34,969 bases of DNA from a virus. Position 1 is the stretch's first letter. Each line of letters begins with the position of its first letter. A program made the translations under genes and the position numbers. The notes beneath the pieces are model-generated. The model ran no database searches, was not told the DNA's origin, and saw only the letters and a program-made list of their open reading frames with translations. Shown here piece after piece: positions 21,776-29,884 of the stretch. The stretch covers positions 1 to 34,969 of the IMG/VR virus record IMGVR_UViG_3300046517_000742; one strand, 5' to 3'.

Positions 21776-23881
21776 TCAGGCCGGGAGTGCGGCGATCGAT
21801 TCCTGCGATGCCCAAACAACGGAATCGAGTGTCCGCTGGTTCTCGACCAAGCCAATCAGCTTCGACTTTCTTTCCTCGTAATCAGGCATCAGATCGGAAG
21901 AAATTTTTTCCTTCACCAAATTCATAACGTGACGCGCAAAATCGTGCCACGCCTCAATCACATATTTCCCATTCGCATGCCCGGTCACGCTTTTGAAGGT
22001 GGATTCAAGAGCATCGAAAGCGCTTAAGCGGCGCTGATCGGAGATATGTGTGATCTGCGATTGAGACTGCTGTGGTTCAAATTTTCGATGAGTACAAACC
22101 ACCTCTTGACCATATCCAATATTGTTGGCGGCCAGAATGCTCTGCCAATGGAATGCAACATCGTTATTTACAGCAGTGCCACCGAAAAATATATCGGCTT
22201 CGTGCAGCAGCTCCGTCTTTATGACCCGATTCCATGGGTAATTGATTAGCGACGCCGCAATCGTCCGCACCTCGTTGTTGCTCTTGGCGTGCGCGAATTT
22301 ATCCCACAGCTTCTTGTCGGAGTGAAACAGATCCCGTTCCTCATTCTTCTCGTGGTATGAAATTTTGTACCTCATGAAGTACAGGTCGTTGTCGCGCTCC
22401 TTCGCGCGCAAGACTGCAGCGGCCAGTTGCTCGCCGTCAAAGAAATCGTCAGCGTCCAAGAAATACGTGTAAAGACCCGTGCTAAGAGGGATGACGGCAT
22501 TGCGTGCACGGCCGGCACCTTTGTTCTTCTGTTGGAAGAAGTGCAGATTTTCGTGTCTCTGCTCCAGTTCCAAACATATTTCTGCGGTCCGATCCTCGGA
22601 GCCATCATCCATCACGATGACGTTCGTTTTGATGCCGGGCACGTTGAGCGCGCAGTTGATAGCCTCTTCTACAAAGCTCTCACAATTGAACGCTGGGATG
22701 ATGACGGTTAGATCATAGTCCGGATATGCATCAAGGGACCTCTTGATCCATCCTCCGAAATTCTCTCGCAGAACCACTCCGGGCATTTTTGCCAGATTTC
22801 TCGAGACGACTTGGCCAAGCCGCTTGCTGATAATCGCCTTAACATCTTTGCGCTCTTGACGACTGGCAATCCACTGACTGCGTAAACTATAGTCGTAAAA
22901 CTCATCGACTATGACCTGATCTTCCGGGAGGTCGAGGGTGTTGCGCAGGAAGCGCGCGATCGTGTTCATGTGGCCACACATGGCAGCCAGTTTGAAATCG
23001 TTCGTTTCCATCGTCTGGCCTTCCCGCCCTTTACGGTGATAGGAGACGACTTCGTTGATCTTGACGAGCTTTCCCGTCGAGGCTACCGCGAACCAGTGAA
23101 ATGGAGCATCTTCAGTGAAGTAATCGCCTTCAGGAAAGGCGATCCTGTTCCGATCGATGAACTCGCGGCGATATAGGTTTCGCCATGGCACGGGCGAAAT
23201 TCGGACGACTTCAGGATGCGACCTACACGTGAAAATCTCGTTTGTCGGAAGCTTGTCGAACGCAAGTCTATCGTAGGCCTCAACCCGGTTTCGAGTGTCC
23301 TGAATAAACGTTTCAAAAGTGCCAATAACAATGTCTGCCTGATGGTGCTCGGCAACGTCTACCAACTTCGAGAAAGATGTTTGCGCTACCCAATCGTCGC
23401 TGTCGACGAAGACAATATAAGTGCCAGTCGCGGCTGCGATCCCGATATTTCGGGGGATGCCTCCGCCGCCGAGCGTATTCTTATCGAGATAGATCGGCCG
23501 GATTCGGCTATCAAGGTCGGCATGCAACGCGATGATTTCCTTGCTAGTGTCCGTCGATCCGTCGTCGATGAGGATCAACTCAAAATCCGCGAACGACTGA
23601 AAGCGAATGGATATAATGCAGGCTTCAAGATAGGCTGCCACATTGTAGACCGGCATAACAATCGACAGTGCCGGGCCACGACGAACGAGCTCTCTAGAAA
23701 TTTCGTTTGTAAGTCTCTTCTTGTCAGTAAGCTCTTTCTCGAGATGGCATTTGTTTGCCATTTCAATATTGAATTGCGCTTGACGGAATAACGGGCTGCT
23801 ATCGCTGATTTCCTCGTATTCGCTTATCGCGCGGTCGTACATTCCGAGCTTAAAAAAATTATTCCCCGATGCGATACTCAT
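21776..23881 (-). CDS. Two-domain GT2 glycosyltransferase (lysogenic conversion candidate)
   Basis: A 701-residue protein starting at ATG 23881 behind AGGAAG; an upstream in-frame ATG at 23908 adds nine residues and is less likely. An N-terminal TPR-like helix pair (NNFFKLGMYDRAISEYEEI) is followed by two GT-A fold family 2 domains. The first has LSIVMPVYN (72-80), DDGS (106-109) and DSDD (160-163). The second has LTVIIPAFN (391-399), DDGS (425-428) and DADD (476-479), the metal/UDP-sugar binding motifs. There are no membrane segments. Lower GC and more A/T-ending codons than its neighbours suggest recent transfer. It probably modifies host capsule or lipopolysaccharide and may block reinfection; the sugar is unknown. 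Confidence 0.88.
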   Translation of the reverse strand: MSIASGNNFFKLGMYDRAISEYEEISDSSPLFRQAQFNIEMANKCHLEKELTDKKRLTNEISRELVRRGPALSIVMPVYNVAAYLEACIISIRFQSFADFELILIDDGSTDTSKEIIALHADLDSRIRPIYLDKNTLGGGGIPRNIGIAAATGTYIVFVDSDDWVAQTSFSKLVDVAEHHQADIVIGTFETFIQDTRNRVEAYDRLAFDKLPTNEIFTCRSHPEVVRISPVPWRNLYRREFIDRNRIAFPEGDYFTEDAPFHWFAVASTGKLVKINEVVSYHRKGREGQTMETNDFKLAAMCGHMNTIARFLRNTLDLPEDQVIVDEFYDYSLRSQWIASRQERKDVKAIISKRLGQVVSRNLAKMPGVVLRENFGGWIKRSLDAYPDYDLTVIIPAFNCESFVEEAINCALNVPGIKTNVIVMDDGSEDRTAEICLELEQRHENLHFFQQKNKGAGRARNAVIPLSTGLYTYFLDADDFFDGEQLAAAVLRAKERDNDLYFMRYKISYHEKNEERDLFHSDKKLWDKFAHAKSNNEVRTIAASLINYPWNRVIKTELLHEADIFFGGTAVNNDVAFHWQSILAANNIGYGQEVVCTHRKFEPQQSQSQITHISDQRRLSAFDALESTFKSVTGHANGKYVIEAWHDFARHVMNLVKEKISSDLMPDYEERKSKLIGLVENQRTLDSVVWASQESIAALPA

Positions 23882-23970
23882 TTTACTTCCTGTTTTGTCA
23901 TCCCGCATAGGTCACCAAGACGCCCGAACTGCCTTCGTCACGTCTTCGTCACCTCCCCCGAAGTAGTTTC

Positions 23971-24263: not shown

Positions 24264-24449
24264 TCAAGTTTTCCTTGTGGCAATGCAGCCCTCCGCACCC
24301 TCAATCACATCGACTTTGCCGCGCCCGGCGTAAGTGTCAAATTCCACCCCGCGCACGAGATAGATCGCCCCGAACAGATCGATCTCCGTCATCTGCTCGG
24401 CGGCTTGCTTGGCTGCGTAGAACTGCTCTTTCGTCGTAATCGGTATCAT
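24264..24449 (-). CDS. Small phage protein of unknown function
   Basis: A 61-residue protein starting at ATG 24449 behind a strong GGAGGT. Longer in-frame readings overlap the upstream gene in a different frame and are rejected. It has a helical N-terminal half (TKEQFYAAKQAAEQM) and a beta C-terminal half (DLFGAIYLVRGVEFDTYAG). It is the last gene of the minus-strand operon. Not recognised. Confidence 0.65.
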   Translation of the reverse strand: MIPITTKEQFYAAKQAAEQMTEIDLFGAIYLVRGVEFDTYAGRGKVDVIEGAEGCIATRKT

Positions 24450-24478: not shown

Positions 24479-24712
24479 TCAGCCCGCGTTCTGCGGCGCA
24501 TCTTCCAACTGTCTCAGCGTTAGCTCGACCGTACAAGGCTTTCCATCTCTCCATCCTGTCGATCCGTGTTTTGTGACCCGGAAATCGCTTATGGCCGTAT
24601 GGAAATGATGCAGTTCCCCATCCAAAATCACGCTCAGTATTACCCGCTCGCACTTTCTCGCCGCTTGCCAAAGCGCGTCTGCAGTTTCTGTTTCTACGTT
24701 CAGTTCAACCAT
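24479..24712 (-). CDS. Small phage protein of unknown function
   Basis: A 77-residue protein starting at ATG 24712 behind GGAGGGG, overlapping the previous stop by one base (TGATG). The sequence suggests an alpha/beta protein (ADALWQAARKCERVILSVILDGELHHF). No family recognised; part of the same operon as the ligase. Confidence 0.7.
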   Translation of the reverse strand: MVELNVETETADALWQAARKCERVILSVILDGELHHFHTAISDFRVTKHGSTGWRDGKPCTVELTLRQLEDAPQNAG

Positions 24713-25080
24713 CACCCCTCCAAATCAGCCCGCACTAGCGGCGCGTCTACCCTATTCCCAATCTCAGCAGCAGCCCGGACGATCGCACGTCGCGTGGCGG
24801 CGCAGTAATCGTTGAACGGTCCAACGCCTTCGCAAAGTGACTTTCGGGTATTGATGCCTTCGACCCAAGGATATTCCGCCGTCACCATCGCAAATTGCTG
24901 GCGAAAGCTAATATCGAGCTCTACGGCCAGCCGGAACGCTGCGCCATCATCTGTCAGCGGATTCCAGATCGTCGGCCCATCTCGTCCCACGCCAAGCACC
25001 AGTCCATCAGGGCTGTTCGTGCTCCAGTGATCAATTCCTGCCGCCTTCGCCGCCAACTCCAACAATTCCCTGTCGTTCAT
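24712..25080 (-). CDS. Conserved phage protein, NinX/DUF2591-like pattern
   Basis: A 122-residue protein starting at ATG 25080 behind GGAGAAGCG. The layout NDRELLELAAKAAGI, then WNPLTDDGAAFRLAVEL and YCAATRRAIVRAAAEIG near the C-terminus recurs in many temperate phages. DUF2591 (NinX-like) proteins share the 'NPxxDDGxAxxL...' and 'AxRRAxV' parts. Function is not established. It lies between the ligase and the next small gene with short gaps. Confidence 0.7.
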   Translation of the reverse strand: MNDRELLELAAKAAGIDHWSTNSPDGLVLGVGRDGPTIWNPLTDDGAAFRLAVELDISFRQQFAMVTAEYPWVEGINTRKSLCEGVGPFNDYCAATRRAIVRAAAEIGNRVDAPLVRADLEG

Positions 25081-25090
25081 CGCTTCTCCA

Positions 25091-25714
25091 TTATTTTCGC
25101 CCAAACCCCAACGCCGCGGGCCGATCATAGCCAGCATTCTTGACCTTGATCCAGTCGCGTGACCTGCCGCGCATATAGGGCGACGCCATGCGCTTGGCTA
25201 GCATGCCCTCAAATCCATAGTATTGCACCTGTTCGAATACCCACGTTCCAACGCCAACAACGGCATTGGAATAAACGAGCGTCGCCGTATCGTCGAATGT
25301 GTCGCGCAGACGACTCCTACGCTCGATGAGTTCCAGCCCGCGTAGGTCGCAGTCTCCCGCGGCCAACAGGTCGAACACGTAAAGCCGCGCCGGGCACGAA
25401 CGCACAGCGGCGCCGATGTTCTTTGGCAAGGTCGTGCGGGCCCGCTGCTGGAGCCGGTCAAATGACAATGGCCCCTTCCCGTCGCCCACGGCCAGTTCGG
25501 CATCCCATGTGAAGTCGCCCGGCACTGCGGCGACCGCATCAACGACGTCGGGAAATGATCGGTTGAATGGTTTGCCAGTGCGGCTGATCAGATCAACCTG
25601 CCCATGTTTTCGGACCAGGCATCTGAAGCCATCGTACTTCCACTCGAACAGCCATTCCTTGTCGGAGAACGGACGCGTCCTGAGAGTGGCGTGCATCAGG
25701 TCTGACGCATCCAT
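25091..25714 (-). CDS. Minimal ATP-dependent DNA ligase (adenylation domain only)
   Basis: A 207-residue protein starting at ATG 25714, overlapping the previous stop (TGATG); an upstream GTG is in frame. It contains the nucleotidyltransferase motifs in order: motif I EWKYDGFR with adenylated K26, motif III WDAEL with E73, IIIa YVFDLL (112-117), IV FEGMLAKR with E169 and V DWIKVK with K190/K192. The chain ends just after motif V, so the C-terminal OB-fold found in most ligases is missing. It may act as a minimal nick-sealing ligase or need a partner. The operon is preceded by an SOS box. The LigD-type ligase is the closest family I recognise. Confidence 0.82.
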   Translation of the reverse strand: MDASDLMHATLRTRPFSDKEWLFEWKYDGFRCLVRKHGQVDLISRTGKPFNRSFPDVVDAVAAVPGDFTWDAELAVGDGKGPLSFDRLQQRARTTLPKNIGAAVRSCPARLYVFDLLAAGDCDLRGLELIERRSRLRDTFDDTATLVYSNAVVGVGTWVFEQVQYYGFEGMLAKRMASPYMRGRSRDWIKVKNAGYDRPAALGFGRK

Positions 25715-25938
25715 CAGTCTGTCCACTTGACCGGCGCCAGCATCGGCTTTGTCGTGTCCACCCCAGCAGTCTGCAACGCCGCGTCAATCTCTGCCAGTTC
25801 GCCAGTGAAGTCCAGTCGCCAGGACTCGCCCTCGCTCGTGGCGGTCATGCCGTTGTGGATCACGAGGGTGTAGCGGGCGAGGAGCAGCGCCTTGACGAGC
25901 GGCGGCTTGTCCTGGTCATCGGTCGGTCTATCGGTCAT
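25714..25938 (-). CDS. Small phage protein of unknown function
   Basis: A 74-residue protein with start ATG 25938 behind AGGAGGCCACC. It has an acidic N-terminus and a predicted alpha/beta core (LLLARYTLVIHNGM, SWRLDFTGELAEIDAALQTAG). It overlaps the preceding gene by 11 nt. Not recognised. Confidence 0.7.
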   Translation of the reverse strand: MTDRPTDDQDKPPLVKALLLARYTLVIHNGMTATSEGESWRLDFTGELAEIDAALQTAGVDTTKPMLAPVKWTD

Positions 25939-26155
25939 GGTGGCCTCCTGTCTGGCGGGGAGCATCGCTCGTGCCTAGCTCGTCATCCGCACCGATGCAT
26001 CGTATCCACGCCGAGCATCCCCTTTCCGGGTTCGCCCTGACCTGCCGACGATTGCCGTCCAGACATAGAGCATGCATCCCGCCAGCGACGTCGCCACCCC
26101 AGCGCTCGCATCCTCGGCAAGGGCGATCGGATGAGGATTCGTTGAATAGGCCCAT
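25928..26155 (-). CDS. Small Cys-rich (zinc-finger-like) phage protein, first gene of SOS-controlled operon
   Basis: A 75-residue protein starting at ATG 26155 with GAGG nine bases upstream. The spacing CRGCERWGG...HALCLDGN...PERGCSAWIRCIGADDE gives four or five Cys that could coordinate zinc. This pattern occurs in small hypothetical phage proteins. It is the promoter-proximal gene of the minus-strand operon containing the ligase; a LexA box lies about 18 nt upstream of its start. Confidence 0.7.
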   Translation of the reverse strand: MGLFNESSSDRPCRGCERWGGDVAGGMHALCLDGNRRQVRANPERGCSAWIRCIGADDELGTSDAPRQTGGHHDR

Positions 26156-26172
26156 GGCGAACCTCGCGAATC

Positions 26173-26191
26173 ACTGTATGGATGTACAGTA
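26173..26191 (-). promoter_or_regulatory. LexA (SOS) box upstream of the ligase operon
   Basis: ACTGTATGGATGTACAGTA matches the gamma/betaproteobacterial LexA consensus CTGT-N8-ACAG exactly, with TA-rich flanks. On the minus strand it overlaps a candidate promoter (TTGCGG, 16 bp, TACAGT). The first gene of the leftward operon starts at 26155. LexA cleavage after DNA damage would then derepress this operon, as in prophage induction. Confidence 0.75.
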
Positions 26192-26261
26192 TGGCCGCAA
26201 AGTTTGACTTATTAGACAGCCCTTTCCGTGTCTAATAAATGCTCGCGGGTTGGCCGCAAAG
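26192..26261. repeat. Direct repeat TGGCCGCAAAG flanking a palindrome
   Basis: The 11-mer occurs at 26192-26202 and 26251-26261, symmetric around the 10-bp-arm inverted repeat at 26209-26238. It may contribute to a nucleoprotein assembly site. Confidence 0.6.
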
Positions 26262-26471
26262 CCGCGCCGGTTGTTGCCTCATTCTTCAGCAACGCATTAG
26301 ACAGCGATTCGCTCCAGAGCTTTCCCATGGCGGCTAATCAAGATGGCGAATCATCTGACGACGGAACAGAAAGACGATGGATTTTCAGCTTGCTTCCAAG
26401 CCAATCCAGGCAACCATTCCGTCGTGCGACATCTGTCCCTGTCTAATGCGCTGTCTAAGCGTTGTCTAATA
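26209..26471. other. Probable attP / integrase-arm or operator region with six TGTCTAA copies
   Basis: The heptamer TGTCTAA (or its complement TTAGACA) occurs six times: complement at 26212 and 26297, direct at 26229, 26440, 26452 and 26463. The first two form TTATTAGACA-N10-TGTCTAATAA; another pair reads GCATTAGACA (26294-26303) and TGTCTAATGC (26440-26449). The cluster ends a few bases beyond the 3' end of the integrase gene. Multiple short sites flanking a core next to int is the layout of phage attP arm sites, although repressor operators cannot be excluded. The core crossover site cannot be read without the host attB. Confidence 0.6.
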
Positions 26472-26482
26472 GATTGCTGACT

Positions 26483-27568
26483 TCACGCGCTACGGGGGAT
26501 TTTTAGACGCACCTTGCTGACCGGCACGGACCGCCGCTTGATGTAATCCTCGGTCTGCTTCGATGTCGAATGAGCCGCCGCTTCTTTCAGGTCTTCGATG
26601 TCGTAGCCGGCATTGCGCGCGTCGGTCAGTCCCTTGGCGCGGATCGCCTTCACCGTGTAGCCCAGCCCTTCAAGTTTCACCCGCTTCGCCGCCCTGAGCC
26701 AAGCTGCCCGGACTGCAGTGGCCCCGTACTCCGACCCGTCTAGTGCGTGGATAACGTTCGCCTCGCCGATGCGCTTCACCTTGCCGTCGATCTCCCGGAC
26801 GCGCGCGAGCACTGCGGCAATCTCCGGCGAGATAAGGATGTCCACGGCGATCCCGCTTGAATCCTCAGTCTTGGTCGGCAGGAAGTGAATCACGCCCGCC
26901 GCGTCGTCCACTTGCGACCACTTCAGCAGCCGGATCTCCGTCGAACGCTGCATGGTCAGGTAGCACAGGTCGACGAAGCATTGCATCATCGGCCCGGTGT
27001 TAATGTGGGCGGTCAGGGTCTTGCCCCGCCACGTGTACTCATAGCTCGCCATCGCCGCGCGGATGGCGGCGAAGTGATCGTCCTTGATGTAGACCTTGCT
27101 CGCCTTGGGCTTCGAAAGCTTAACCTCCCGGCATGGATTCGAAACGATCTTGTCCTCCTTGACGCACCACTGAAAGAATCCCGACAGGAACGCGCGCATC
27201 ACACGCTGCATCGGCAATTTGCCGGCGTACTTCGTCGTTAGCCACTTCTCCACATGCGATGGCCGGACGTCCCTGACGTTCGCGTTACGGAAACCGCTTC
27301 CGGCGTAATCTCCGTACCTCGGCCATGCCCGCTCCTTGTGCCCCGCTTTTTTCAGGCGCACGTACTCGTCGATCAGCGGGCGCATGTCGCCCATTCCCTC
27401 TGGCCGCTCGAAGCGCTTGCGTTCCTGTGATAGGCGCTCGAGCAACTTCGATTCGGGATCGGTCTGTTCGCACAGCCTGATCCATTGGCCGGTGCGTGGC
27501 TCGACCCAGTACCACGCACCGTGCTTCGGATAGACGCGCGGGTATTTCGCTTTTTTGCGCGGTGTCAT
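26483..27568 (-). CDS. int: Tyrosine recombinase, phage integrase
   Basis: A 361-residue site-specific recombinase. The N-terminal half has a core-binding (SAM-like) domain around 60-150. The catalytic domain shows R208 in MQRSTEIRLLKW, K233 in PTKTEDSSG, R310 in KAIRAKGLTDA, H333 in AAHSTSKQTE and nucleophile Y342 in EDYIKR. The usual His of the HxxR box is Lys (K307-x-x-R310), a known variant. Transcribed toward the att-like region, it ends the leftward early operon. A two-base gap follows the DUF4224 gene. Confidence 0.93.
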   Translation of the reverse strand: MTPRKKAKYPRVYPKHGAWYWVEPRTGQWIRLCEQTDPESKLLERLSQERKRFERPEGMGDMRPLIDEYVRLKKAGHKERAWPRYGDYAGSGFRNANVRDVRPSHVEKWLTTKYAGKLPMQRVMRAFLSGFFQWCVKEDKIVSNPCREVKLSKPKASKVYIKDDHFAAIRAAMASYEYTWRGKTLTAHINTGPMMQCFVDLCYLTMQRSTEIRLLKWSQVDDAAGVIHFLPTKTEDSSGIAVDILISPEIAAVLARVREIDGKVKRIGEANVIHALDGSEYGATAVRAAWLRAAKRVKLEGLGYTVKAIRAKGLTDARNAGYDIEDLKEAAAHSTSKQTEDYIKRRSVPVSKVRLKIPRSA

Positions 27569-27570
27569 CT

Positions 27571-27819
27571 TCAGTCAAAACAGAGTTCAACGATTCCTGG
27601 GGCATTGCCGCCAGTTGCGAGACCAACCTTTCTGGCCGAAAGCGCCTCATATGTCGACCAGGTCATGACGATACTGCGATCGTCCCGCTGCGTCACCGTC
27701 ACGCCAAACTGATGCTTGAACCACTCGGCCTGCTTCGAATACCGGCGTTTGCCGGTGATCTCAACCAGTTCGACAGGCGACATGAGCCGACTAGCCATCA
27801 TAGTCCCTTGTGCATTCAT
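27571..27819 (-). CDS. DUF4224 protein, excisionase-like candidate
   Basis: An 82-residue protein starting at ATG 27819 behind GGAGGTGGGG, with an ATGA overlap to a micro-ORF upstream. LMSPVELVEITGKRRYSKQAEWFKHQFGVTV is the DUF4224 signature: the ELxELTGxxRxxxQxxWLxxxG motif. Members lie directly before integrase genes in many temperate phages and are thought to act as excisionases or regulators of integration. Directionality control is inferred, not shown. Confidence 0.82.
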   Translation of the reverse strand: MNAQGTMMASRLMSPVELVEITGKRRYSKQAEWFKHQFGVTVTQRDDRSIVMTWSTYEALSARKVGLATGGNAPGIVELCFD

Positions 27820-27884
27820 TCCCCACCTCCCATCCACGCCCGTCGTGTAGTTTCAATTACCCGCTTTGCTTCTGCTTCGATCAT
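27816..27884 (-). CDS. Micro-ORF (22 codons) between rtcB and the DUF4224 gene
   Basis: A frame starting MIEAEAKRVIETTRRAWMGG whose start is in the rtcB stop (ATGA) and whose stop is in the next start (ATGA). Mutual 4-nt overlaps at both ends, and an amphipathic basic helix, suggest real translation, either as a micropeptide or as a bridge keeping ribosomes coupled. There is no homology evidence. A similar micro-ORF lies upstream of rtcB. Confidence 0.5.
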   Translation of the reverse strand: MIEAEAKRVIETTRRAWMGGGE

Positions 27885-29884
27885 GCGCCCTTCACACATA
27901 AGACTTGTTTGAGGACATGCACGACTTCGACCAGATCGCGCTGATTCTCCATCACGACGTCGATGTCCTTGTACGAGCCCGGTATCTCGTCCAGCACCGC
28001 ATCATCCTTACGGCACTCGACACCCTGGGTCTGCCGCTCCAGATCCGCAACCGTGAACGTGCGGCGAGCCTGCGCGCGGCTCATCTTGCGGCCGGCTCCG
28101 TGCGAGCATGAGCAATACGACTCCAGATTGCCCTTGCCGCGGACGATGTAGCTACGCTGCCCCATCGAACCGGGAATGATGCCAAGGTCGCCTTCACGCG
28201 CCCGGATGGCTCCCTTGCGCGTCACCCATAGGTTGCGGCCGAAGTGGTTCTCGCGCTCGACATAGTTGTGATGGCAATTATGTGCTATGATTCCATTAGC
28301 AAAATACCAACCGGAATCAGTCGAAAGGTTATACACATGCCCCGCCCAATGCCCACGCACGACATCAACGACCTCGTCCAGCGATACACCGATGGCGCTT
28401 CCGTTGAGGCCCTCGCCAAGCTGACTAAAATCAGCGCCCCCAGCATCACCAAACTCCTCCGATCCGCCGGAGTTGAAACCCGCAGTTGGAGTGGCGCCTT
28501 GCACGTCAGAATGCAATCCATGACCAGCGAGAACCGGCGCACTATCGTCAGCAATGCGAACATCGCGCGCCGCGGCGCTGTCGCATCCCCCATTGAGCTC
28601 GCTAAGAAGGCGATCACTAAAGCTGTCACTTTCAGCAAGGTCGGAGCCGAGGAGACCGAGTTCGCGGAACTGCTCAAGCAGCGAGGCGTGCTTACCGTAC
28701 CCCAGCATCAAGTCGGCGCCTACAACATCGACCTCGCGGTCGTCGGCCAACAGGTCAACGTCGCCGTGGAAATTCACCGACGAACCAACAATCCGACGAG
28801 CCGTGCCACTGACGCTAAGCGAATCAAAGAGCTTGGCGAACTCGGTTGGTTCGTCCTGTACGTCTGGATCGATCCCAGAAACCAATGCATCGGACCCACA
28901 AGCGCCGATGAGGCAGTCGCCTACATCAATCTCGCCCGCCTTGATCCAGCCGGCACGAGTCAATATCGGGTGATTCGGGGTGACCGTAAGCTTGCGGCCT
29001 GACTTCGTTGTAAGCGTGACCATGTCGCCGCTGTAGTACCGCTTGAATGCGGTTTTCACATCGGCGGCACTTACATCGGTATCGCCCGCAAAACAGTTCA
29101 CCGCCTCGTGCGTGATCGTGAACTTGACCGTGATATGCCGACGAAGCGCTGCGATGACTGCCTCCATCATGACCCGGCGATTCTCAAGCGCGTAGTCCTG
29201 CGCCCAGTTGACCGCTTCGACGTAGTCGTTGAAGTCGTCCGTGTCTTCCGGGAAGTAGGCCAGATCGCCGTCAGGCAGGCTGATGAAGTATTGCTCCATC
29301 CGCTTCTTGGCCTTCTCGATGAAGTAACGGCCAATCATGTTGCCAACACCACGCGAGCCCGAATGCAGCATCACCCATACGTCTTGGGCCTCGTCGATGC
29401 AAAGCTCGATGAAGTGATTGCCGGAGCCGAGTGAGCCGAGTTGGCGCTCCGCCTGATTCTTGGCCAGGACAGGATACTTATCCGACAGCGCTTGCAATCC
29501 TCGCCACATATCGGCGCCCGCGTTGGGCGCGCGTTCGGGCCGATGCGCCCCGCCTGCCCCAAGCGGAACATCCCGCTCGATCTGATGACGGATCGTAGCC
29601 AGGCTGTCGGGCAGGTCGGATGCCTTCAGCGACAAGCGCACGGCGTTCATCCCGCACCCGATGTCAACTCCGACCGCTGCCGGCACAATGGCCTTGTTCG
29701 TCGCAATGACCGTTCCGACCGTCGCGCCGATGCCAGCGTGAACATCGGGCATGCAGGCGACGCCATTGCCTGCAATGAACGGCAGGCGGGCGATGTTCTT
29801 CAATTGCGTCAGAGCCGAATCCTCGACCTCATCCGTCCAGATTTTGATCGGGCGTGCACCCTCTTCGTTGATGACTTTCTTCAT
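27881..29884 (-). CDS. rtcB: RtcB RNA ligase precursor interrupted by an intein
   Basis: RtcB joins 2',3'-cyclic phosphate (or 3'-phosphate) and 5'-OH RNA ends with GTP and manganese, as in tRNA splicing and repair. The 667-residue precursor is host RtcB residues 1-263, an intein of 273 residues (264-536) and RtcB residues 537-667; the spliced enzyme has 394 residues, near the 408 of E. coli RtcB. Key sites are present: D74/C77 (VDIGCGM), SGNHF (H157), LHSGSRG (H174), HE (H259/E260), CHHNY after splicing and SHGAGR (H322 in the spliced protein), the guanylated His. The intein lies between N263 and C+1 of NCHHNY, so splicing is needed for activity. Start ATG 29884 follows GGGAAA. Phage RtcB is expected to repair tRNA cleaved by host anticodon nucleases. 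Confidence 0.9.
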   Translation of the reverse strand: MKKVINEEGARPIKIWTDEVEDSALTQLKNIARLPFIAGNGVACMPDVHAGIGATVGTVIATNKAIVPAAVGVDIGCGMNAVRLSLKASDLPDSLATIRHQIERDVPLGAGGAHRPERAPNAGADMWRGLQALSDKYPVLAKNQAERQLGSLGSGNHFIELCIDEAQDVWVMLHSGSRGVGNMIGRYFIEKAKKRMEQYFISLPDGDLAYFPEDTDDFNDYVEAVNWAQDYALENRRVMMEAVIAALRRHITVKFTITHEAVNCFAGDTDVSAADVKTAFKRYYSGDMVTLTTKSGRKLTVTPNHPILTRAGWIKAGEIDVGDCLIGACGSDALVSGIDPDVQDEPTEFAKLFDSLSVSGTARRIVGSSVNFHGDVDLLADDREVDVVGADLMLGYGKHASLLEQFRELGLLGSDLAESDSFSDRLLSELNGGCDSAAARDVRIADDSAPVLAGHGLHSDVQGATPTAGFNSGGSEEFGDAGGADFSQLGEGLNGSAIGVSLDEVVDVVRGHWAGHVYNLSTDSGWYFANGIIAHNCHHNYVERENHFGRNLWVTRKGAIRAREGDLGIIPGSMGQRSYIVRGKGNLESYCSCSHGAGRKMSRAQARRTFTVADLERQTQGVECRKDDAVLDEIPGSYKDIDVVMENQRDLVEVVHVLKQVLCVKGA
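28283..28291 (+). promoter_or_regulatory. Extended -10 promoter inside intein block G codons
   Basis: TGCTATGAT is an extended -10 (TGn followed by a 5/6 match to TATAAT) on the plus strand, antisense to the Ile-Ile-Ala codons of block G. A rare ATA Ile codon creates the TAT. It lies about 46 nt upstream of the antisense endonuclease start, suiting an independent promoter. Confidence 0.5.
28337..29002 (+). CDS. Antisense homing endonuclease, Vsr-like (EDxHD type), nested in the intein
   Basis: A 221-residue protein starting at ATG 28337 behind GAAAGG; longer in-frame starts at 28244 or 28280 would begin in extein or at the junction. An N-terminal helix-turn-helix (residues 10-48; VEALAKLTKISAPSITKLLR) is followed by a Vsr-like/PD-(D/E)XK-fold nuclease: E108 in EETEFAELLKQRG, VPQHQVGAYNIDLAV with D132, VAVEIHRR with E145 and H147, and ELGELGWFVLYVW. 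The fold and residues suit the EDxHD homing family known from Dassa-type fractured genes and I-Bth0305I. Each codon is exactly antisense to an intein codon (endonuclease residue n opposes intein residue 254-n), so the gene contains no TTA, CTA or TCA codon. It lies entirely within intein DNA. Confidence 0.8.
   Translation: MPRPMPTHDINDLVQRYTDGASVEALAKLTKISAPSITKLLRSAGVETRSWSGALHVRMQSMTSENRRTIVSNANIARRGAVASPIELAKKAITKAVTFSKVGAEETEFAELLKQRGVLTVPQHQVGAYNIDLAVVGQQVNVAVEIHRRTNNPTSRATDAKRIKELGELGWFVLYVWIDPRNQCIGPTSADEAVAYINLARLDPAGTSQYRVIRGDRKLAA

What the first reader, a model, noticed from the sequence alone, without database searches (positions are those of the whole stretch)
26173..26191. Near-consensus SOS box controlling a ligase-containing phage operon
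ACTGTATGGATGTACAGTA is a perfect CTGT-N8-ACAG 18 nt upstream of the first gene of a six-gene leftward operon. LexA control of a phage DNA-ligase operon separate from the main repressor circuit would link DNA repair/circularisation genes to the same DNA-damage signal that induces prophages.
Basis: partly seen in the sequence, partly recalled or inferred. Interest (0 to 1): 0.62.

Follow-up and report, generated by a model that had tools for sequence, protein, structure and literature searches.

The report
LexA-controlled DNA-ligase cassette in Burkholderiaceae phages
A temperate phage of Paraburkholderia-type bacteria carries next to its attachment site a switch that matches the host's own DNA-damage alarm system, placed so that a small DNA-ligase gene cluster should turn on when DNA is damaged; the same switch sits in front of the same first gene in dozens of otherwise different phages.

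Summary
In detail: CTGTATGGATGTACAG (26174-26189) is the window's only exact CTGT-N8-ACAG, 18 nt before a leftward run of six small genes, the third an ATP-dependent ligase domain. The bare 8-base core would occur about 0.5 times per window by chance. The case rests on three other results. First, a 20-bp matrix built from lexA and recA boxes of ten Paraburkholderia/Caballeronia genomes scores the site 25.1 bits (host sites 19.4-26.7; 0 of 200 shuffled windows). The identical 20-mer precedes a umuD gene in Caballeronia. Second, homologues of the first gene lie behind such a box in all 15 intact host-genome loci and in 29 of 37 non-redundant upstream groups, where only the box is conserved. Third, in a P. 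panacisoli prophage with the same integrase and att core, it is the only strong box in the 80 kb searched, ~180 bp inside attR and ~55 kb from a CI-like S24 repressor. Host LexA control is therefore well supported but not shown by binding. The function is inferred: a LexA-gated accessory (moron) repair cassette, often with a divergent SRAP gene. The ligase lacks the OB domain. LexA-controlled prophage operons are known; this cassette appears undescribed.

The parts
26172..26191 (-). LexA operator (SOS box); read in the operon's direction TACTGTACATCCATACAGTG
   Evidence: 25.1 bits against the host lexA/recA matrix; identical 20-mer before umuD in Caballeronia
26188..26193 (-). probable -10 element CATACT overlapping the operator (family consensus TATACT)
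   Evidence: 36 aligned sites, T23 A28 T29 A33 C36 T36; the simple sigma-70 scan found no full promoter, so inferred
25928..26155 (-). first gene, 75 aa, new small family with four invariant cysteines (C13, C16, C31, C47)
   Evidence: no Pfam, PHROG, NCBIfam or PDB match
25714..25965 (-). second gene, 83 aa, unknown; recurs in 7 of 40 box loci
25091..25726 (-). ATP-dependent ligase adenylation domain, 211 aa, no OB domain
   Evidence: PF01068 1.8e-26 covering profile positions 16-204 of 204, no PF04679; conserved KYDG, EGM-AK and W-K motifs
24712..25137 (-). fourth gene, 141 aa, phrog_5086 (unknown function)
24479..24715 (-). fifth gene, 78 aa, GTG start, unknown
24264..24449 (-). sixth gene, 61 aa, unknown (start chosen by me)
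26354..26369 (.). attP core TCTGACGACGGAACAG, flanked by TTAGACA-type repeats (26212, 26229, 26297, 26440, 26452, 26463) that look like integrase arm sites
   Evidence: the same 16 bp flank the P. panacisoli prophage at 132847 and 200790
26483..27568 (-). tyrosine integrase, 361 aa
   Evidence: PF00589 4e-10; 85% identical to the P. panacisoli prophage integrase
27571..27837 (-). excisionase
   Evidence: phrog_1266; 90% identical in the P. panacisoli prophage

Best explanation
The 20-bp palindrome is an operator for the host's LexA repressor. In a lysogen LexA should sit on it, over the probable -10 element, and keep the leftward six-gene operon off. When DNA damage makes RecA filaments, LexA cleaves itself and the operon is transcribed from the end of the prophage that adjoins attR, independently of the phage's own repressor. 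The operon is best read as a host-responsive accessory (moron) cassette: a small four-cysteine protein, an adenylation-domain ligase and several unknown small proteins that help DNA ends survive damage in the lysogen or during excision and early replication. Shown by sequence: the operator, its match to host LexA sites, its conservation, the operon layout and its position beside attP. Inferred: LexA binding, damage induction and the repair role.
For: Host class: in the GTDB genome set the first-gene family was found only in Paraburkholderia and Caballeronia, and beta-proteobacterial LexA uses CTGT-N8-ACAG (PMC3323433). Host lexA promoters carry two such boxes (e.g. TACTGTATAAAAATACAGTC and ACCTGTTCATCCATACAGTG) and recA one. 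Matrix score 25.1, 0/200 in shuffles. A Caballeronia umuD gene has the identical 20-mer. All 15 intact host-genome homologues have a box; 29 of 37 non-redundant upstream groups do, as do the named phages AP3 and IPK. In 36 aligned sites information is essentially confined to the box and the overlapping TATACT. In 149 kb of host-genome loci 14 of 16 sites scoring >=17 are the box before this gene; 200 kb of other loci have none. Repair context: ligase in 15 of 40 box loci, including an independently acquired 324-aa LigD-type ligase with OB domain. SOS-associated SRAP (PF02586) is divergent from the box in L052, L102, L008, L047, L098, L108 and in phage AP3; in L039 SRAP has its own box. SRAP with Ku, ATP-dependent ligase and zinc-chelating domains is an established SOS neighbourhood (PMC3765255).
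Against: No binding or expression data. The hosts that were scored are those of relatives; the host of this metagenomic record is inferred. Eight of 37 upstream groups of the first gene lack a strong box, one of them a 16-member group, so LexA control is not universal. No -35 consensus was found. The ligase lacks its OB domain and the first gene has no assigned function or usable structure model.
Confidence: 0.85

Rival explanations
1. LexA controls the operon, but its point is prophage induction: the small first protein is an antirepressor, as with Tum of phage 186 or GfoA/GftA of the Gifsy phages.
For: Small first gene, LexA box outside the immunity region and far from the repressor; the same layout is documented for Gifsy, 186 and N15 (PMC3121763).
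Against: The nearest prophage encodes a CI-like repressor with an S24 autoprotease domain that should be cleaved directly. The first-gene family is shared by phages with different backbones, including P2-like AP3, and its partners are ligase and SRAP. No antirepressor family match.
Confidence: 0.15
2. LexA controls the operon, and its use is lytic: early ligase supply for circularisation, repair and replication of the excised phage genome after induction, with little effect on the lysogen.
For: The operon lies next to attP, integrase and excisionase, and the record itself carries a joined attP.
Against: Many box loci have no ligase (25 of 40); neighbours such as SRAP point to damage tolerance. 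Neither observation excludes it.
Confidence: 0.25
3. The palindrome is the operator of a phage-encoded LexA-like repressor, not of host LexA.
For: Phages can encode LexA homologues (phage GIL01, PMC6182141), and the related prophage has an S24 repressor.
Against: Only one strong box in 80 kb covering the prophage and none near its repressor; the box matches host lexA, recA and umuD boxes.
Confidence: 0.04
4. Chance palindrome.
For: The 8 fixed bases alone are expected about 0.5 times in a window of this size.
Against: Score far above shuffles and conservation before the same gene in 29 unrelated upstream groups.
Confidence: 0.01

Closest known systems
LexA-controlled antirepressor operons of Gifsy-1/2 (gfoA, gftA), 186 (tum), N15 (antC)
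   Same: LexA box in a temperate phage, outside the immunity region, driving a small-gene operon separate from the repressor
   Different: Those encode antirepressors that induce the phage; here the gene products look like repair functions and the related prophage has an S24-type, probably self-cleaving repressor. No antirepressor family was matched
SRAP/ImuB-C SOS neighbourhoods with Ku, ATP-dependent ligase and zinc-chelating domains (2013, PMC3765255)
   Same: SOS-associated combination of SRAP, ligase and a small cysteine-rich protein; that paper notes SRAP in SPBc2 and in a B. thailandensis prophage
   Different: Here the cassette is phage-borne, shares a LexA operator and no Ku was seen; this window has ligase and cysteine protein but no SRAP
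Phage 437 of Paraburkholderia terrae (PMC5567305)
   Same: Mitomycin C-inducible Paraburkholderia phage with a DUF159 (SRAP) gene and a 216-aa LigD-like ligase
   Different: LexA control was not described there; its sequence was not examined here
Burkholderia phage AP3 (KP966108) genes 0003-0004
   Same: First-gene homologue with a 28.9-bit box and adjacent divergent SRAP gene
   Different: P2-like phage, no ligase in the cassette; its paper does not mention LexA or SOS

Membership tests
LexA (SOS) regulon of beta-proteobacteria | CTGT-N8-ACAG palindrome matching the host's own lexA/recA boxes | tested here: met
LexA (SOS) regulon of beta-proteobacteria | Site overlaps or lies next to the promoter of the first gene | tested here: met
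   18 nt before the start codon; TATACT overlap across 36 sites; no -35 found
LexA (SOS) regulon of beta-proteobacteria | Site conserved before orthologous genes | tested here: met
   29 of 37 non-redundant upstream groups; 15 of 15 intact genome loci
LexA (SOS) regulon of beta-proteobacteria | LexA binding and RecA-dependent induction by DNA damage | not testable with these tools
   needs gel shift and RNA measurement
ATP-dependent DNA ligase | Adenylation domain with nucleotidyltransferase motifs | tested here: met
   PF01068 1.8e-26, conserved KYDG, EGM-AK, W-K motifs
ATP-dependent DNA ligase | C-terminal OB domain | tested here: not met
   211 aa, no PF04679, while L100 and L102 ligases have it
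LexA-controlled prophage antirepressor | LexA box outside the immunity region | tested here: met
   related prophage only
LexA-controlled prophage antirepressor | Product inactivates the phage repressor | not testable with these tools
   no family match

The most novel reading that the evidence does not exclude
Burkholderiaceae temperate phages share a mobile, LexA-gated DNA-damage cassette whose constant element is a new four-cysteine protein, joined in different phages by an OB-less ligase, a LigD-type ligase and/or SRAP: a phage-borne repair or end-protection system that joins the host SOS regulon upon lysogeny.
Probability: 0.4. Interest if true: 0.65.

Novelty: new variant of a known kind. 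Interest (0 to 1): 0.5.

Why it matters
It shows many different phages keeping a host LexA operator in front of the same small gene while everything around it changes, so lysogeny would add genes to the host's SOS regulon. It also gives a concrete, testable set (new cysteine protein, OB-less ligase, SRAP) for what prophages contribute to DNA-damage survival.

Tried and rejected
Exact E. coli consensus TACTGTATATATATACAGTA with 3 mismatches: no hit; the right yardstick is the host's own boxes. DNA-level phage match: none. First-gene search in plasmids: none. Structure models: first gene pLDDT 44, ligase 53, both too poor to use, so no fold search was run. Sequence profile of the first gene against PDB, NCBIfam and Pfam: nothing significant (one member hits DUF3716 at 0.032, ignored). 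Sigma-70 consensus scan: no promoter found. Considered and rejected: chance, and a phage-encoded LexA as the binder.

Full report
OBSERVATION. The 19-mer is at 26173-26191 and the CTGT-N8-ACAG core at 26174-26189. It is the only exact core in the record. The core alone is not remarkable: about 0.5 exact sites are expected in a window of this size and composition, and 1-mismatch sites are at expectation. So I tested the full site against independent standards.

HOST. The window is an IMG/VR virus record, linear and incomplete, with no close match in the phage collection. The family of the first gene behind the box (75 aa, four invariant cysteines) was found in 50 viral loci and, in the GTDB genome set, in 18 loci that are all Paraburkholderia or Caballeronia. 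A P. panacisoli genome carries an 85% identical integrase on the same contig as ligase and first-gene homologues. Beta-proteobacterial LexA recognises CTGT-N8-ACAG (PMC3323433).

COMPARISON WITH HOST LexA SITES. In ten of these genomes the lexA promoter has two boxes and the recA promoter one. A symmetric 20-bp matrix from the 13 distinct lexA/recA boxes gives the window site 25.1 bits. The host sites score 19.4-26.7, the second-best place in the window 12.6, and 200 simulated windows reach at most 20.7. A Caballeronia umuD homologue has the identical 20-mer, TACTGTACATCCATACAGTG, before its start.

CONSERVATION. All 15 intact host-genome homologues of the first gene have an exact box upstream. 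Grouping 300-bp upstream regions (80% identity over 120 bp) leaves 37 groups; 29 have a box scoring at least 16 within 80 nt of the gene (the group tally was made by hand from that output). Burkholderia phage AP3 (28.9 bits) and Paraburkholderia phage IPK (23.0) have it too. In 36 aligned sites the conserved columns are the box and the overlapping TATACT, which would be a -10 element. The loci were chosen for an exact core, so the fixed 8 bases are conserved by selection of the sample; the N8 pattern, the flanks and the lack of conservation elsewhere are not. In 149 kb of host-genome loci, 14 of 16 places scoring >=17 are this box; 200 kb of other viral loci have none. Eight groups lack a strong box, including one 16-member group with a different shared upstream sequence.

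POSITION. The P. panacisoli prophage is bounded by a 16-bp repeat, TCTGACGACGGAACAG, at 132847 and 200790. The same 16 bp lie at 26354-26369 in the window, between integrase and operon, so the window carries the joined attP. In that prophage the box is at 200607, about 180 bp inside attR, and is the only strong site in the 80 kb searched. A CI-like repressor (HTH-like N-terminus by eye, Peptidase_S24 8e-26) lies near 145 kb with no box. I identified no repressor in the window itself, so separateness from the repressor is established for the relative only.

CONTENT. The operon's first four genes overlap, consistent with one transcript. The third is an adenylation domain (PF01068, 1.8e-26) with the expected motifs but no OB domain. 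A ligase is present in 15 of 40 box loci; two (L100, L102) are 324-aa LigD-type enzymes with OB domain, so ligase was probably joined to this box more than once. SRAP (PF02586) is divergent from the box in six loci and in AP3, and in L039 has its own box. SRAP, ATP-dependent ligase and zinc-chelating small domains form known SOS neighbourhoods (PMC3765255). A mitomycin C-inducible P. terrae phage carries DUF159 and a 216-aa ligase (PMC5567305), but LexA control was not described.

MECHANISM. Most likely: LexA repression in the lysogen, derepression on RecA-stimulated LexA cleavage, expression of a repair-type accessory cassette. The operator identity is well supported; binding, induction and function are inferred. 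The stated confidence (0.85) is for LexA control of the operon with an accessory role; the repair role alone I would put near 0.5. Antirepressor and lytic-use readings remain open and are listed as rivals; they share the LexA step with the main explanation.

KNOWN OR NEW. LexA-controlled prophage operons are known (Gifsy, 186, N15: PMC3121763; CTX phage: PMC3323433). I found no description of this cassette or of the cysteine-rich family; the paper library is incomplete, so absence there is weak evidence. I rate it a new variant of a known kind.

Noticed in passing
27881-29884 (-): RtcB gene interrupted in frame by an intein (PF14890 at aa 269-536 between the two RtcB halves).
   Followed up: no
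26354-26369: Joined attP core with TTAGACA-type repeats on both sides: the record represents an excised or circular form, not an integrated prophage.
   Followed up: partly
21776-23908 (-): 710-aa protein with two glycosyltransferase family 2 stretches between the tail genes and the ligase operon, possibly a surface-modifying moron.
   Followed up: no
L053-L075 (16 loci), upstream of the first gene: Relatives of the first gene without a LexA box share another upstream sequence, e.g. GCAGAATTAGTATTTGCTTTGCAATTCCGCTGTGGTATC, perhaps a different promoter.
   Followed up: no
L037:3723-3993: Three LexA-type boxes in a row before the first gene (17-19 bits each).
   Followed up: no
L039:4910-4929: SRAP gene with its own LexA-type box, 25.4 bits, separate from the first-gene box.
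   Followed up: partly
window vs P. panacisoli contig C103: Integrase, excisionase, attP and the box operon are shared while most tail genes are not: the att-side block moves as a module between phage backbones.
   Followed up: partly
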